21,436 nt of DNA, taken from positions 1 through 21,436 of the IMG/VR virus record IMGVR_UViG_3300008120_005414. One strand, written 5' to 3'. A model generated the notes under the pieces. That model worked only from the letters and a program-made list of their open reading frames with translations, made no database searches and was not told the DNA's origin. Shown here one piece after another: positions 896 to 7,885 of the stretch. The position numbers were made by a program, and so were the translations under genes. Each line of letters starts with the position of its first letter. Within the stretch, counting starts at the first letter, position 1. Source of the stretch: a virus.

Positions 896-967
896 ATGTG
901 GACACAGCCAACATTTGAAGATGTACGATTTGGTTTTGAAGTAACCATGTACATTAATAATCGATAA
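896..967 (+). CDS. pqqA: PqqA, 23-residue precursor peptide of the cofactor PQQ
   Basis: This short frame reads MWTQPTFEDV, then RFGFEVTMY, then INNR and stop. It is 23 residues, the same length as classical PqqA of Klebsiella and Pseudomonas. The glutamate and tyrosine of the E-V-T-M-Y core fall at positions 15 and 19, the two side chains that PqqE cross-links and that become pyrroloquinoline quinone. The MW start and the R-x-GFEVTMY core match the Pseudomonas-type peptide. A strong ribosome site (AAAGGAGAG, 882-890) lies just ahead. No pqqB-E genes are visible here, so the peptide would have to be processed by host PqqD/PqqE/PqqF-like proteins. PqqA is consumed one-for-one per PQQ, so extra peptide could raise cofactor supply for methanol dehydrogenase. 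The formaldehyde-fixing genes just downstream support this reading. Confidence 0.93.
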   Translation: MWTQPTFEDVRFGFEVTMYINNR

Positions 968-976
968 GTATATAAT
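948..976 (+). promoter_or_regulatory. candidate sigma70-type promoter for hxlA
   Basis: TGTACA (948-953, four of six matches to TTGACA), a 17-base spacer and TATAAT (971-976, perfect) overlap the end of pqqA. A start near 983 would put the following hairpin and T-run inside a short leader ahead of hxlA. AT-rich DNA gives chance matches, so this is tentative. Confidence 0.35.
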
Positions 977-991
977 ATATCTGAAACAACA

Positions 992-1034
992 CCCACGACG
1001 CCTCTCTATAGAAGCGCACCACGTGGGATTTTTT
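992..1034 (+). terminator. hairpin plus T-run between pqqA and hxlA
   Basis: CCCACG (992-997) pairs with CGTGGG (1022-1027), an inner CGC (999-1001) pairs with GCG (1014-1016), and ATTTTTT follows at once. This has the form of an intrinsic terminator. It would end a short pqqA transcript, with some read-through into hxlA. If the promoter at 948-976 is real, it would instead sit in the hxlA leader as an attenuator. Confidence 0.65.
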
Positions 1035-1054
1035 AACCTTGAGGAAAGTAAATT

Positions 1055-1690
1055 ATGGCGTTGATTCAAGTAGCACTCGATACTCTAGACTATGAACAAA
1101 CGATTCGTCTAGCTCAACGCATCTCACCCTATGTAGATATCATTGAACTCGGCACTCCGTGTGTTAAGTATAATGGTATTCGTATCGTCGAAACAGTTCA
1201 CATACTTATTCGAGACTGCCTAACTCTAGCAGATCTTAAGACAATGGACGCTGGGCTATATGAAGCCACACCATTCTACGAAGCTGGTGCTGATATCGTT
1301 ACCGTTCTTGGTGCTGCTGATGCTGGTACAATCAAAGGTGTAGTTGAAGCATCTAAGTCAACTAAAGCGCAAGCACAGGTTGATCTTATTAATGTAAAGA
1401 ATAAGCTAGAAACTGTTGCTCTTGCATATGAACTTGGTGCTCATATTATTGGCGTGCATACTGGACTAGATCAGCAGGCAAAAGGTCAGACGCCATTTGA
1501 AGATCTAAGGAAAGTTCAACAGATGAAAGTTGGTCTTAAGATCTCTGTTGCTGGTGGTATTAACAAGGATACCGTTCGTCAAGTTATTGATGCTGGTGCT
1601 GATATCGTTGTAGTAGGTGCAGCAATTTATGGTGCTACTGACCCCGTTCGCGCTGCTGCTGAAATTCGGGAAGCAGTTGAACGTGGCTAA
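1055..1690 (+). CDS. hxlA: 3-hexulose-6-phosphate synthase (HPS)
   Basis: The product is 211 residues, the usual HPS length. HPS condenses formaldehyde with ribulose 5-phosphate to give D-arabino-3-hexulose 6-phosphate, the first step of the ribulose monophosphate cycle. Seen: an orotidine-phosphate-decarboxylase-like barrel, with LADLKTMDAG carrying the D-x-K-x-x-D catalytic signature in its HPS form, then HTGLDQQAKG, and phosphate-binding VAGGIN and VVGAAIYGA strands near the C-terminus. DLKTMDAG and the HTGxDQQ segment favour HPS over the related decarboxylases KGPDC and UlaD. A GAGGAAA ribosome site lies at 1041-1047. The end overlaps hxlB by 8 bases, so the two are translationally coupled, as expected for a substrate-channelling pair. 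Confidence 0.92.
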   Translation: MALIQVALDTLDYEQTIRLAQRISPYVDIIELGTPCVKYNGIRIVETVHILIRDCLTLADLKTMDAGLYEATPFYEAGADIVTVLGAADAGTIKGVVEASKSTKAQAQVDLINVKNKLETVALAYELGAHIIGVHTGLDQQAKGQTPFEDLRKVQQMKVGLKISVAGGINKDTVRQVIDAGADIVVVGAAIYGATDPVRAAAEIREAVERG

Positions 1691-2249
1691 TTACTCTGAT
1701 GTTCTTGATATTCTAAGAGACGAACTGCTCTATACCGAAAAGGAAACATGTCAGCAACTTATTGATGTACTCATTCATACGATAAGTCGGAAAGAACATT
1801 ATAATGGCGGAAGAGTGTTTATTGCTGCTGCTGGTAGATCTAAGATGGTTGCCAATATGTTTGCGATGCGAATGATGCATTGTGGATTAAATGTGCAAGT
1901 AGTTGGAGAAACTACTACAACTCAGATAACGAGATTTGATTCGCTTCTTCTCGTTTCTGGTTCGGGTGAGACTAAGCAGTTGATCAATTTTGCTGAGAAG
2001 GCAAAGTCAGTTCGTTCAGAAGTATTGTTAGTAACAGCAAATCCAACTTCTACTCTTAGGAATATGGCTGATGAGGTTTTTCAGATTGGTCCATCAAATA
2101 GACTTCTATCTCCTGATAAGAATCTTCCTCTCGGTAGTAGGTTTGAACTCTCTACTATGATATTTTTTGAAACTGTTATTCTTAATTTCATGGAACAACT
2201 GAAGCTCACTGAAGACAATTTGAGAAACTGTCATACTAATTTGGAATAA
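1683..2249 (+). CDS. hxlB: 6-phospho-3-hexuloisomerase (PHI)
   Basis: PHI isomerises hexulose 6-phosphate to fructose 6-phosphate, the partner step to HPS. I chose the GTG at 1683: it overlaps the HPS stop, has GGGAAG nine bases upstream (1668-1673), and gives 188 residues starting MANYSDVL, the normal size. Starting at 1617 would bury the gene in hxlA. Seen: a SIS fold with the AAAGRSKMVANMFAMRMMHCG segment (family: GAGRSG..A.AFAMRLMHLG), VVGETTT, SGSGET for sugar-phosphate binding, and PLGSRFELSTMIF (family PLGTLFE). All key segments look intact. The stop lies directly ahead of the tmRNA, and a late-promoter-like box overlaps its last codons. Confidence 0.92.
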   Translation: MANYSDVLDILRDELLYTEKETCQQLIDVLIHTISRKEHYNGGRVFIAAAGRSKMVANMFAMRMMHCGLNVQVVGETTTTQITRFDSLLLVSGSGETKQLINFAEKAKSVRSEVLLVTANPTSTLRNMADEVFQIGPSNRLLSPDKNLPLGSRFELSTMIFFETVILNFMEQLKLTEDNLRNCHTNLE

Positions 2250-2252
2250 ATA
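2245..2252 (+). promoter_or_regulatory. candidate late promoter for the tmRNA (AATAAATA)
   Basis: AATAAATA overlaps the hxlB stop codon. It differs from the T4 late box TATAAATA in the first base only; that base is variable in marine T4-like phages. A start about 12-15 bases on would fall at the expected 5' end of the tmRNA acceptor piece. Confidence 0.4.
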
Positions 2253-2326
2253 GTATTGTTGGTATGGTCGTATGAAGTAAAGGGAAGGTATTCTGGACGC
2301 GGGTGCGAATCCCGCCACCTCCACCA

Positions 2327-2410
2327 AAAGCACACTCACCAACGCAAGGGGCGTTGGTCCCATTAAGGTTTTCTAGAGACTGGGATAGTTGCAACGAGTG
2401 TGCTTTTGAT
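2327..2410 (+). other. tmRNA intervening segment, removed on processing
   Basis: These 84 bases join the CCA end to the mature 5' end. AAAAGCACACTC (2326-2337) pairs perfectly over 12 bases with GAGTGTGCTTTT (2396-2407). Inside are hairpin ACCAACGC/GCGTTGGT (2338-2345, 2351-2358) and a weaker CCCA/TGGG pair (2359-2362, 2381-2384), giving a three-way junction stacked next to the acceptor stem. Processing at the CCA and at G2411 would free the two pieces. Confidence 0.8.
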
Positions 2411-2497
2411 GGGGGTGACTAGATTCGACAGGGTAAGATACTGATACAGACGACTCGGTAGGCGATGACCGTAAATCAAGCAAAAAATATAAATGTC

Positions 2498-2542
2498 GCA
2501 GCAAACGACGATCTATTTGAAGGTTACGCTCTAGCAGCTTAA
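2498..2542 (+). other. tmRNA tag reading frame (AANDDLFEGYALAA, stop)
   Basis: The resume codon is taken as GCA at 2498, directly after ATGTC, where E. coli and Caulobacter tmRNA have GTC-GCA. The frame reads A-A-N-D-D-L-F-E-G-Y-A-L-A-A and ends at TAA (2540-2542). The AAND start matches the alphaproteobacterial form, and the A-L-A-A end fits recognition by ClpXP. Confidence 0.9.
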
Positions 2543-2563
2543 TCTGTCATTAGCGGGGTGTTC

Positions 2564-2605
2564 GGTCCGTTGTCCTTGTTACTCAATCAACGGACCACCT
2601 AATTT
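2564..2605 (+). terminator. hairpin at the end of the tmRNA coding piece
   Basis: GGTCCGTTG (2564-2572) pairs perfectly with CAACGGACC (2588-2596) around a 15-base loop (TCCTTGTTACTCAAT). ACCTAATTTTT follows, so it may end the tmRNA precursor, although the T-run is set back a few bases. It may instead be the last helix of the mature RNA. The loop contains the stop codon of the HNH gene on the other strand. Confidence 0.55.
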
Positions 2606-3212
2606 TTGTTGACAATTTCGCGTTACAAGATCTACTACAACATTTTTGATTTGAAGGCGATTTGTGTACAAACTCTTGCTTTACAAAATTATTTTTGCAA
2701 ATTACGCAAACATATTCTCTATTGATCTTCGGTTTAGATTTGTGAATCACATTTAATGATTTTAAAAGCGTTGATTGTGTGCATTTTCTTTCTGGATTTT
2801 TAGACCAAGCCTCTTTCGCAGATTTTCCATCTTTATTTGGATTATTTGATTTGAATAATTCAGCGTGTTTCTGTCTAGCAGAAGAATACAATGAAGAATT
2901 TATTAAATAATTTCTTTGATGATTATCAGTTTGTTTTACCATCATTCTCATTAATGCATAATTCATTTGAAATTGTTTTCTTCCTTCAAACATCTTAGTA
3001 AGAAGTAAATGACAGATATAATGTTCTCTCGCGGTTAGCTTGACTATATTTTCTTGATCTTTTTCACCACCCAGTTTAAAACATTTAGGTAAAATATGGT
3101 GATTCTCACCATAACCATTTACATATTTTGAGTTTTGTATTATACTAATATACCATTTAGTATATTTGTTTGAAAGGGATAAAAATTGGATTTGTTGAAT
3201 ATAAATATTCAT
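2583..3212 (-). CDS. HNH homing endonuclease, free-standing
   Basis: This is a 209-residue protein and the only gene on the minus strand. Seen: an HNH core with GENHHILPKCFKLGG (His38, His39), ENIVKLTAREHYICHLLL (Asn55, His64, His68), and a C-terminal zinc-finger-like CVIC...CCSRSC region. HNH nucleases cut DNA with a divalent metal; free-standing ones in T4-like phages act as homing elements that spread to sister phages. The start at 3212 has AAGGAGT seven bases upstream. The gene ends inside the hairpin loop at the tmRNA end, so its transcript runs antisense into the tmRNA. It is clearly more AT-rich than its neighbours, which fits separate origin. No intron is apparent. Confidence 0.88.
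   Translation of the reverse strand: MNIYIQQIQFLSLSNKYTKWYISIIQNSKYVNGYGENHHILPKCFKLGGEKDQENIVKLTAREHYICHLLLTKMFEGRKQFQMNYALMRMMVKQTDNHQRNYLINSSLYSSARQKHAELFKSNNPNKDGKSAKEAWSKNPERKCTQSTLLKSLNVIHKSKPKINREYVCVICKNNFVKQEFVHKSPSNQKCCSRSCNAKLSTKIRWSVD
3200..3207 (+). promoter_or_regulatory. TATAAATA box pointing right
   Basis: This exact T4-type late box lies inside the first codons of the HNH gene but reads on the + strand, towards the gene at 3338. It would make a leader of about 125 bases containing the hairpins described for this region. It may be chance, since the element sits in a reading frame. Confidence 0.35.
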
Positions 3213-3337: not shown

Positions 3338-3586
3338 ATGCATATAGATCCGCGATATTCGATTCAGTCAGTGCAACCTAACTATGTAACTCCTAAAGTT
3401 GCTCAGACTAAAGTTGCTGAGATGCAAGTGCAACATTTTGTGACAGTTATCAATCCAGATCTATCTGTATCAATTAAGAATATTATCGATGACTTCTATA
3501 CGTATGATCATTTGAATGGAAAAATTGTAATGAAGAAAGTTATTTGTCGAATTAACTCCACTACCTTTAATCCGGTAGATGCATAA
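3338..3586 (+). CDS. small protein of unknown function
   Basis: This codes for 82 residues starting MHIDPRYSIQ. I do not recognise a family. The start at 3338 follows AAGGA at a spacing of seven bases; an upstream in-frame start at 3170 would run across promoter and hairpin elements and is unlikely. No signal peptide or membrane segment is visible. The C-terminal half (SIKNIIDDFYTYDHLNGKIV) could form a compact helix-strand domain. Its stop overlaps the next start as TAATG, so it is translationally coupled to the deaminase. The leader suggests control at translation. Confidence 0.75.
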   Translation: MHIDPRYSIQSVQPNYVTPKVAQTKVAEMQVQHFVTVINPDLSVSIKNIIDDFYTYDHLNGKIVMKKVICRINSTTFNPVDA

Positions 3587-6577: not shown

Positions 6578-7885
6578 ATGGCACAGTTTAGAACAGATTT
6601 AAAAATATTAGATGGACCTCATAATCGTACACGATATGAAGTGATGATGTTAAATGATAGATTAACTACATCTGGTTCTTTAACGGATGCATTTGGTCGT
6701 CTTCGCACATCAACTCCATTTACTCTATTTGACAGTCAACATCGTTATAAAGAAAATGATAAGTTTGATACATTAATCGTAGGAGCTACGGCTAATAGTC
6801 AATATAAAATAAATGAATCTGCAATTAATTTAAACGTTGGCACTTCATCTGGCGATAAAGTAGTACGCGAATCTAAAAGAGTATTTGCATATCAACCCGG
6901 AAAATCTCTGCTTATTATGAATACGTTTGTGATGAATGAACCGAAAGCTCAAGTGCGTCAAAGAGTAGGATATTTTGGTAACAATAACGGTATATATTTA
7001 GAGGCAAATGGCGTTAACATTTCATTAGTTAAAAGAAGTTATTCTAGTGGAACTATAGAAGAAACAGTAATTCCTCAGTCATCTTGGAATATAGATAAAT
7101 TTGACGGAAAAGGTTTTTCTGGACAAATGGCCCTTGCGAATAATCACGGACAAGGATTATTTGTAAATAAATCTAATTTATTTTGGATAGACATGGAATG
7201 GTTAGGTGTAGGAGATGTTAGATGTGGATTTTTAGTAGATGGCGGACTATATCCAGCTCATGTCTTTCATCACGATAACGTGGCTAATACTGCATACATA
7301 ACAACCGCAGTACTACCCATTCGTTATGAAATAGAAAATTTAGATACGACTATCTCTTCATCTACCTTAAAACAGATATGCTCTACCGTTATTTCAGAAG
7401 GAGGATATCAGGGTAGAAACAAAGCTAGATCACAGACTATAAATTTAAATGATTTTAAAACTCTTACCACGGCTAATACTTATTATCCGGTAATGAGTAT
7501 AAGATTAAGTCCTGATAGACCCGACGCAGTAGTTCTTCCGAAAAATTTTGATTTAGGTGTCATAACTAATCAAACTACTACTTTACATTATAAAATATTA
7601 ATCAACGCTAATTTATCTAATACGTCATTTGCCAATTGTCAGGGAAATACAGTGCAATTTGATATAAGTGCTAATTCAACGGTTTCAGAAGGCACATTAA
7701 TCAAATCGGGTTATATTAGTACTAGTCAAAAAGGTGCGGCGATAGATATAGGATCTATAGACGAGTTCGAAATACAACTAGGAAGAACTATAAGCGGCAA
7801 TAGTGATGTTTTTTCTTTAATTGTAGCAAGTGAAGCTGGTGGTGTTAAAGTTGGTGCTACATTAGAATGGTTTGAATTAATATAA
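6578..7885 (+). CDS. virion structural protein, marine T4-like type
   Basis: The product is 435 residues. Seen: a start with DAFGRLRTSTPFTLFDSQHRY, a middle VGYFGNNNGIYLEANGVNISLVKRS, and FWIDMEWLGVGDVRCGF then LPIRYEIENL. I recall this combination from virion proteins of cyanophages and other marine myoviruses, where it is usually labelled structural protein. The C-terminal part (SGYISTSQKGAAIDIG...) is beta-rich. No enzyme motif is seen. AAAGG precedes the ATG by eight bases. It is likely exposed on the particle, possibly in tail or neck, but its exact position cannot be told. Confidence 0.75.
   Translation: MAQFRTDLKILDGPHNRTRYEVMMLNDRLTTSGSLTDAFGRLRTSTPFTLFDSQHRYKENDKFDTLIVGATANSQYKINESAINLNVGTSSGDKVVRESKRVFAYQPGKSLLIMNTFVMNEPKAQVRQRVGYFGNNNGIYLEANGVNISLVKRSYSSGTIEETVIPQSSWNIDKFDGKGFSGQMALANNHGQGLFVNKSNLFWIDMEWLGVGDVRCGFLVDGGLYPAHVFHHDNVANTAYITTAVLPIRYEIENLDTTISSSTLKQICSTVISEGGYQGRNKARSQTINLNDFKTLTTANTYYPVMSIRLSPDRPDAVVLPKNFDLGVITNQTTTLHYKILINANLSNTSFANCQGNTVQFDISANSTVSEGTLIKSGYISTSQKGAAIDIGSIDEFEIQLGRTISGNSDVFSLIVASEAGGVKVGATLEWFELI

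What the first reader, a model, noticed from the sequence alone, without database searches (positions are those of the whole stretch)
896..2249. Phage methylotrophy cassette: pqqA, hxlA and hxlB in a row
Seen: a PqqA peptide, HPS and PHI within 1.4 kb, with hxlA and hxlB overlapping. Known: PQQ is the cofactor of methanol dehydrogenases, and HPS and PHI are the two dedicated steps fixing formaldehyde in the ribulose monophosphate cycle. Inference: the phage boosts both ends of methanol use, the oxidation cofactor and formaldehyde fixation, producing fructose 6-phosphate and pentose phosphates for phage DNA. It would also keep formaldehyde from building up. This makes a methylotroph such as the OM43 clade the likely host.
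Basis: partly seen in the sequence, partly recalled or inferred. Interest (0 to 1): 0.92.

Follow-up and report, generated by a model that had tools for sequence, protein, structure and literature searches.

The report
Phage genes for formaldehyde fixation
A virus of methanol-eating bacteria carries the two enzymes that fix formaldehyde into sugar and the peptide from which the methanol-oxidation cofactor is made, plus, between them, a small RNA resembling the antidote of a bacterial anti-virus toxin.

Summary
pqqA (896-967), hxlA (1055-1690) and hxlB (1683-2249, 8-nt overlap) are real and pass NCBIfam cut-offs. hxlAB recurs in six other IMG/VR contigs (an hxlB part in a seventh) under purifying selection. 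Phage HPS and PHI form their own clades among RuMP-cycle proteobacteria. HPS has HPS-type, not KGPDC-type, residues at four discriminating sites. Genuine phage PqqA in INPHARED occurs only in Methylophilales phages and one environmental phage, so a Methylophilales host is likely; OM43 specifically is not shown.

Corrections: pqqA is not always beside hxlAB; the steadier partner is a downstream permuted tmRNA. One relative has lost hxlAB by deletion.

Added: a covarying hairpin RNA (992-1027) lies between pqqA and hxlA. A model built only from phage copies finds it in bacterial genomes just upstream of Abi_2/AbiF toxin genes, where it is the likely antitoxin RNA. The viral loci sampled carry it without AbiF, in varied contexts, once inside a pre-tmRNA. 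This suggests RNA mimicry against AbiF. It misses Rfam's abiF threshold.

Phage methanol dehydrogenase plus pqqA is published; I found no report of phage HPS/PHI. Functions are inferred, not tested.

The parts
896..967 (+). pqqA, 23-aa PQQ precursor peptide
   Evidence: TIGR02107 43.7 bits, cut-off 20
948..976 (+). promoter-like TGTACA-17-TATAAT at the end of pqqA, about 15 bases before the RNA
   Evidence: 10 of 12 matches, but such sites are no more frequent than in shuffles; GATAAGTATATAATA is kept after pqqA in the window, G429, G426 and L150
992..1027 (+). abiF-type hairpin RNA
   Evidence: covariation; phage-only model R2 47.7 bits; Rfam RF03085 19.7 bits, under threshold
1055..1690 (+). 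hxlA, 3-hexulose-6-phosphate synthase (HPS)
   Evidence: TIGR03128 236 bits, cut-off 200; tree
1683..2249 (+). hxlB, 6-phospho-3-hexuloisomerase (PHI), GTG start
   Evidence: TIGR03127 163.1 bits, cut-off 160; tree
2227..2633 (+). permuted tmRNA, betaproteobacterial type, starting inside the end of hxlB; tag VAANDDLFEGYALAA
   Evidence: ARAGORN 2234-2633; Rfam RF01850 101.6 bits at 2227-2602 and RF04321 129.4 bits at 2266-2542

Best explanation
An auxiliary metabolic module of T4-like phages of methylotrophic bacteria, most likely Methylophilales. HPS condenses formaldehyde with ribulose 5-phosphate and PHI isomerises the product to fructose 6-phosphate (the two dedicated RuMP-cycle steps). 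This keeps formaldehyde from building up and carbon flowing into hexose and pentose phosphates for nucleotide synthesis during infection. PqqA supplies the consumable peptide from which host PqqB-E make PQQ for the host's own methanol dehydrogenase. The RNA between pqqA and hxlA is a separate, probably trans-acting element that resembles the antitoxin RNA of AbiF systems. Shown here: gene identity by sequence, methylotroph ancestry, purifying selection, recurrence, RNA structure and its link to AbiF in bacteria. Inferred: enzyme activity, direction of flux, benefit to the phage, host, and RNA function.
For: Curated HMM cut-offs passed for all three proteins. Phage HPS clade (98*) lies with RuMP proteobacteria (98*), away from Bacillus, actinobacterial, cyanobacterial and archaeal HPS; same for PHI (98*, 96*). 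At the four KGPDC/HPS sites the phage has D110, L138, A166, A190 (sites E112/R139/T169/R192 from my knowledge of the KGPDC mutant work). dN/dS hps 0.06-0.22, phi 0.07-0.25. Recurs in further IMG/VR contigs. Phage PqqA in INPHARED: nine Methylophilales/Methylophilaceae records plus one environmental phage; six types checked have full ORFs. The window also holds thyX, nrdA, nrdB, thioredoxin and dCMP deaminase, fitting nucleotide supply. Lake Baikal Methylophilaceae phages carry methanol dehydrogenase and pqqA (PMC7678222).
Against: No expression or enzyme data. No methanol dehydrogenase on the eight contigs, all fragments. pqqA and hxlAB are separable. hxlAB was lost in L150, so it is dispensable. 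The tmRNA is of a permuted betaproteobacterial type that G003, G161 and G365 do not show above threshold, so it does not confirm that family as host. HPS/PHI is reversible and could run the other way.
Confidence: 0.75

Rival explanations
1. Reverse use: PHI and HPS turn fructose 6-phosphate into ribulose 5-phosphate plus formaldehyde, giving pentose for nucleotides and, through methylene-tetrahydrofolate, a one-carbon unit for thymidylate synthesis by ThyX.
For: Archaea use the pair in this direction (general knowledge; PMC10904782 cites such work on Methanosarcina); the phage has thyX and ribonucleotide reductase genes.
Against: The genes fall with methylotroph HPS/PHI, not archaeal ones. pqqA beside hxlAB and in Methylophilales phages points to a methanol-oxidising cell, where formaldehyde is produced.
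Confidence: 0.1
2. Passenger genes: hxlAB is a recent, non-functional host acquisition with no benefit to the phage.
For: It was lost in L150 and is rare in IMG/VR: seven contigs besides the window.
Against: dN/dS 0.06-0.25 over long divergence; diagnostic residues kept; phage-specific clades in several phage backbones.
Confidence: 0.07
3. For the RNA: it is a leader, attenuator or terminator that controls hxlA, not a trans-acting antitoxin mimic.
For: It lies directly before hxlA in the window, G424, G425, G426, G428 and G429 and ends in a T-run.
Against: It is absent before hxlA of G427. The same core precedes unrelated genes or none elsewhere and lies inside a pre-tmRNA in L144. The loop and bulge are conserved far beyond what a terminator needs, and bacterial copies sit before abiF genes.
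Confidence: 0.3
4. The host is a gammaproteobacterial methanotroph rather than a Methylophilales bacterium.
For: Methanotroph-like genomes, including Methylothermaceae, have HPS as close to the phage as the probable Methylophilaceae have (55-60% identity).
Against: PqqA in isolate phages is limited to Methylophilales phages. The tmRNA is of betaproteobacterial type.
Confidence: 0.2

Closest known systems
Lake Baikal Methylophilaceae phages VP_139 and VP_266 (PMC7678222)
   Same: T4-like phages of methylotrophs with methylotrophy genes, including pqqA
   Different: They carry methanol dehydrogenase; HPS and PHI are not mentioned in the text (0 hits for 'hexulose'). Here HPS and PHI without methanol dehydrogenase.
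3-hexulose-6-phosphate synthase and 6-phospho-3-hexuloisomerase of RuMP-cycle proteobacteria
   Same: Family, diagnostic residues, hxlA followed by hxlB
   Different: 55-60% identity for HPS; own phage clades; overlapping genes; followed by a permuted tmRNA in four contigs
PqqA of Methylophilales phages Venkman, MEP301, P19250A, MEP402, Melnitz
   Same: Complete 23-24-aa PqqA with conserved E-x-x-x-Y
   Different: No HPS/PHI match in those records; the ORF is unannotated in the first four
abiF RNA (Rfam RF03085) and the RCd22 antitoxin RNA of the C. difficile AbiF system (PMC12373285)
   Same: Same topology (6-bp stem, 3-bp inner stem, CUCU loop start, 3' bulge); bacterial counterparts sit directly upstream of Abi_2 genes
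   Different: Phage copies have no abiF gene; single motif, not a tandem pair; below Rfam's gathering score
abiF sRNA of cyanophage S-CREM1 (PMC9964418)
   Same: abiF RNA in a T4-like phage; that paper also counts three phage sequences in Rfam
   Different: That one scores 51.6 bits in Rfam; no anti-AbiF role appears in the passages read; the RNA here is a divergent subgroup
Pseudo-ToxI of phage PhiTE (PMC3475682)
   Same: Phage-encoded mimic of a toxin's antitoxin RNA
   Different: Different toxin and RNA; pseudo-ToxI activity was shown by experiment, here it is inferred

Membership tests
3-hexulose-6-phosphate synthase (TIGR03128) | score above curated cut-off | tested here: met
   236 vs 200 bits; KGPDC models below their cut-offs
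3-hexulose-6-phosphate synthase (TIGR03128) | HPS-type rather than KGPDC-type residues at the four discriminating sites | tested here: met
   D110, L138, A166, A190 in the alignment with 1xbx/1xby; site list recalled from the literature
3-hexulose-6-phosphate synthase (TIGR03128) | HPS activity | not testable with these tools
   needs purified enzyme
6-phospho-3-hexuloisomerase (TIGR03127) | score above curated cut-off; grouped with RuMP-cycle PHI | tested here: met
   163.1 vs 160 bits; tree
6-phospho-3-hexuloisomerase (TIGR03127) | PHI activity | not testable with these tools
   needs purified enzyme
PqqA (TIGR02107) | score above cut-off; Glu and Tyr in E-x-x-x-Y | tested here: met
   43.7 vs 20 bits; E16 and Y20
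PqqA (TIGR02107) | beside pqqBCDE (usual in bacteria, not required) | tested here: not met
   none seen beside phage pqqA here or in the isolate phages viewed; the host would have to supply them
Auxiliary metabolic gene of phage | among phage genes, host-derived family, under purifying selection | tested here: met
abiF RNA (RF03085) | Rfam gathering score 37 | tested here: not met
   window 19.7, L113 24.6, L121 27.9 bits
abiF RNA (RF03085) | family topology with covarying stem | tested here: met
   100% of cells paired, 5 of 6 outer pairs with two-sided changes, slid structures fail
abiF RNA (RF03085) | upstream of an abiF gene | tested here: not met
   bacterial relatives yes (L159, L161-L164, L166, L168, L170, L173, L175, L176); phage copies: no AbiF in 639 kb of viral loci

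The most novel reading that the evidence does not exclude
Phages of methylotrophs and other aquatic bacteria carry orphan abiF-type RNAs as antitoxin mimics that occupy host AbiF and block its abortive-infection response. In this lineage the RNA is built into the pqqA-hxlAB-tmRNA region, so one stretch combines formaldehyde fixation with RNA-based counter-defence; in other phages the RNA lies in the spacer of a permuted pre-tmRNA and might be released by tmRNA processing.
Probability: 0.4. Interest if true: 0.87.

Novelty: new variant of a known kind. Interest (0 to 1): 0.73.

Why it matters
Phage photosynthesis and pmoC genes showed that viruses steer host energy metabolism. Phage HPS/PHI would extend this to the carbon-fixing step of methylotrophy, a sink for methanol carbon. 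It is directly testable by 13C-methanol labelling if a phage with hxlAB is isolated on a cultured Methylophilales strain. The short pqqA, missed in the annotation of most isolates viewed, is a candidate host marker for Methylophilales phages. The orphan abiF-type RNA makes a simple, testable claim about RNA mimicry against the AbiF family, the proposed ancestor of Cas13, and the model used here finds copies below Rfam's threshold.

Tried and rejected
KGPDC (UlaD-like) identity for HPS: rejected by cut-offs and residues. Methanol dehydrogenase on the same contigs: none. Host from tmRNA type: inconclusive; RF01850 stayed under its cut-off in six HPS-bearing genomes, and the OM43 phage Melnitz has an alphaproteobacterial-type tmRNA (PMC9004378). 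BET42a 23S probe to name the unnamed family: two copies in G395 only, so weak support for Betaproteobacteria. INPHARED HPS/PHI hits read as probable bacterial contamination or distant relatives. First PHI coordinate (1684) out of frame, corrected to 1683. The genome scan with the phage HPS alignment used narrow patterns and returned no Methylophilaceae; replaced by class and family searches. Rfam at gathering threshold shows nothing at 992-1027; blastn of the RNA against isolate phages gave nothing convincing. The fold z-score of the single intergenic sequence is unremarkable (-1.25); the case for structure rests on covariation. MAFFT misplaced the 3' stem in four RNAs, so pairs were counted on the 11 that align. 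Great Salt Lake, Lac Pavin, sponge and methane-AMG papers found by text search do not report phage HPS/PHI in the passages read.

Full report
OBSERVATION. The window is a 21,436-base IMG/VR virus record, a fragment. pqqA runs 896-967 (23 aa), hxlA 1055-1690 (211 aa), hxlB 1683-2249 (188 aa, GTG start, 8-nt overlap). The three pass NCBIfam cut-offs: PqqA 43.7 vs 20, HPS 236 vs 200, PHI 163.1 vs 160 bits. Flanking genes are phage genes: nucleotide-sugar epimerase, homing endonuclease, dCMP deaminase, virion structural protein, primase, thyX, RNR large and small subunits.

IDENTITY. The best solved relatives of HPS are 3-hexulose-6-phosphate synthases (3ajx, 9lj9), not KGPDC. At the four positions where KGPDC mutants gained HPS activity (E112, R139, T169, R192; from my knowledge) the phage has Asp, Leu, Ala, Ala. 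PHI matches YckF and MJ1247 over the SIS domain. The PqqA peptide keeps E16 and Y20.

DISTRIBUTION. Scans of viral contigs with single proteins and with alignments gave hxlA and hxlB in G424, G425, G426, G427, G428 and G429, and an hxlB part in G430; G425 and G426 may be one population. INPHARED gave no convincing phage HPS or PHI. dN/dS is 0.06-0.22 for hps and 0.07-0.25 for phi. The genes lie in clearly different phage backbones.

ANCESTRY. Phage HPS forms one clade (98*) inside a group (98*) of Methylothermaceae, other methanotroph-like genomes and a 57-genome family in which 48 carry HPS, mostly two copies. PHI gives the same picture (98*, 96*). I infer that family to be Methylophilaceae from its RuMP genes and genome sizes; one member, G395, has the betaproteobacterial BET42a 23S site twice, the others tested do not. 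The exact donor is unresolved.

HOST. PqqA in INPHARED: 12 records. Of the two 'Acinetobacter phage' records, the one opened is a bacterial pqqABCD operon; the other looks alike by its match. Nine are Methylophilales/Methylophilaceae phages and one is environmental. Five isolate phage types and the environmental one have complete PqqA ORFs with AGGA-type ribosome sites, unannotated in Venkman, MEP301, P19250A and MEP402. This supports a Methylophilales host without proving it. No methanol dehydrogenase is present on the eight contigs.

GENE ORDER. pqqA-RNA-hxlAB is contiguous in the window, G429 and G425/G426. In G424 pqqA is about 3 kb downstream on the other strand; in G427 about 24 kb away; the G428 fragment shows none. 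A permuted tmRNA directly follows hxlB in the window, G424, G427 and G429; in the window it starts inside the 3' end of hxlB. L150 (contig of 154,777 bases) has pqqA, the RNA, about the last 20 codons of hxlB, the tmRNA and the dCMP deaminase, but neither hxlA nor the body of hxlB: a deletion, with the tail perhaps kept because the tmRNA precursor needs it (inference).

THE RNA. Between pqqA and hxlA lies CCCACGACGCCUCUCUAUAGAAGCGCACCACGUGGG (992-1027). G429 has CCCGTG...CACGGG where others have CCCACG...CGTGGG. The core GACGCCTCTC-N2-6-GAAGCGCACCA occurs in 43 stretches of IMG/VR, mostly not beside hxlA. In L144 it lies between the acceptor and coding parts of a permuted tmRNA, and six other loci share that sequence context. 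On 11 aligned sequences all cells pair, five of six outer pairs change on both sides, 0 of 500 shuffles reach the covariation score, and slid structures fail (the set includes one bacterial RNA). Rfam's best match is abiF RNA, below threshold: 19.7 to 27.9 vs 37.

LINK TO AbiF. Of 57 genomes of the probable Methylophilaceae, G385 has an RF03085 match of 33.8 bits just before an ORF with Pfam Abi_2 at 174.7 bits. Model R1 found 17 matches in 14 of 369 class genomes; L161-L164, L166, L168, L170, L173, L175 and L176 encode an AbiF relative of the G385 protein at the RNA, with an RN[ILV]CAHH motif in the eight read in full. Three of these RNAs pass Rfam's own threshold. Model R2, from phage copies alone, recovers them at 28 to 51 bits and the window at 47.7. 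A profile of the AbiF proteins finds none in 639 kb of the viral loci. So the phage RNA is a relative of the abiF antitoxin RNA without its toxin gene. Antitoxin mimicry is the simplest trans-acting reading, by analogy with pseudo-ToxI (PMC3475682) and the antitoxin activity of an abiF RNA (PMC12373285); it is not shown. Some bacterial matches (L160, L165, L167, L169, L171, L172, L174) have no AbiF match beside them, so orphan copies exist in bacterial assemblies too, perhaps in prophages.

PRIOR ART. Phage methanol dehydrogenase and pqqA: PMC7678222. Phage pmoC, fae and other methane genes: PMC10904782. abiF sRNA in cyanophage S-CREM1 (51.6 bits): PMC9964418. No text on phage HPS/PHI was found in the open library; subscription papers are not covered.

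VERDICT. The cassette is real, methylotroph-derived and under selection; its identity is near certain, its benefit inferred. It is a new pair within the known kind of methylotrophy auxiliary genes. The abiF-type RNA is the less expected part and deserves its own test.

Noticed in passing
window 992-1027; L116-L158: abiF-type hairpin RNA without abiF gene in 43 IMG/VR stretches, in several contexts, under Rfam's threshold where checked.
   Followed up: partly
L144 6555-6917 (RNA core at 6662-6685); same sequence context in L116, L133, L135, L137, L145, L157: The abiF-type RNA lies in the intervening segment of a permuted pre-tmRNA, between the CCA end and the coding part.
   Followed up: partly
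L150 8100-8700: Relative that lost hxlAB but keeps pqqA, the RNA and the last codons of hxlB before the tmRNA.
   Followed up: yes
window 2227-2633 and 2583-3212 (-): Permuted tmRNA of betaproteobacterial type (tag VAANDDLFEGYALAA) with a homing-endonuclease gene on the opposite strand overlapping its end.
   Followed up: partly
window about 3338-3586; G424, G427, G430: 82-aa protein of unknown function (MHIDPRYSIQ...) kept at about 86% identity near the tmRNA in otherwise divergent phages; no Pfam match for the G427 copy.
   Followed up: no
INPHARED CAKLQF020000010.1 (L182) and OR84xxxx records: Records labelled as phage that look like bacterial DNA (L182 carries pqqABCD); a source of false auxiliary metabolic genes.
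   Followed up: partly
L177-L180 (Venkman, MEP301, P19250A, MEP402): Complete, unannotated pqqA ORFs in Methylophilales phage isolates.
   Followed up: yes
L160, L165, L167, L169, L171, L172, L174: Bacterial-genome matches of the RNA model without an AbiF match beside them; possibly prophages or orphan copies.
   Followed up: no
L140 10945-11017 (-): Weak AdoCbl-II riboswitch match (25.3 vs 36.5 bits) near an abiF-type RNA in a viral contig.
   Followed up: no
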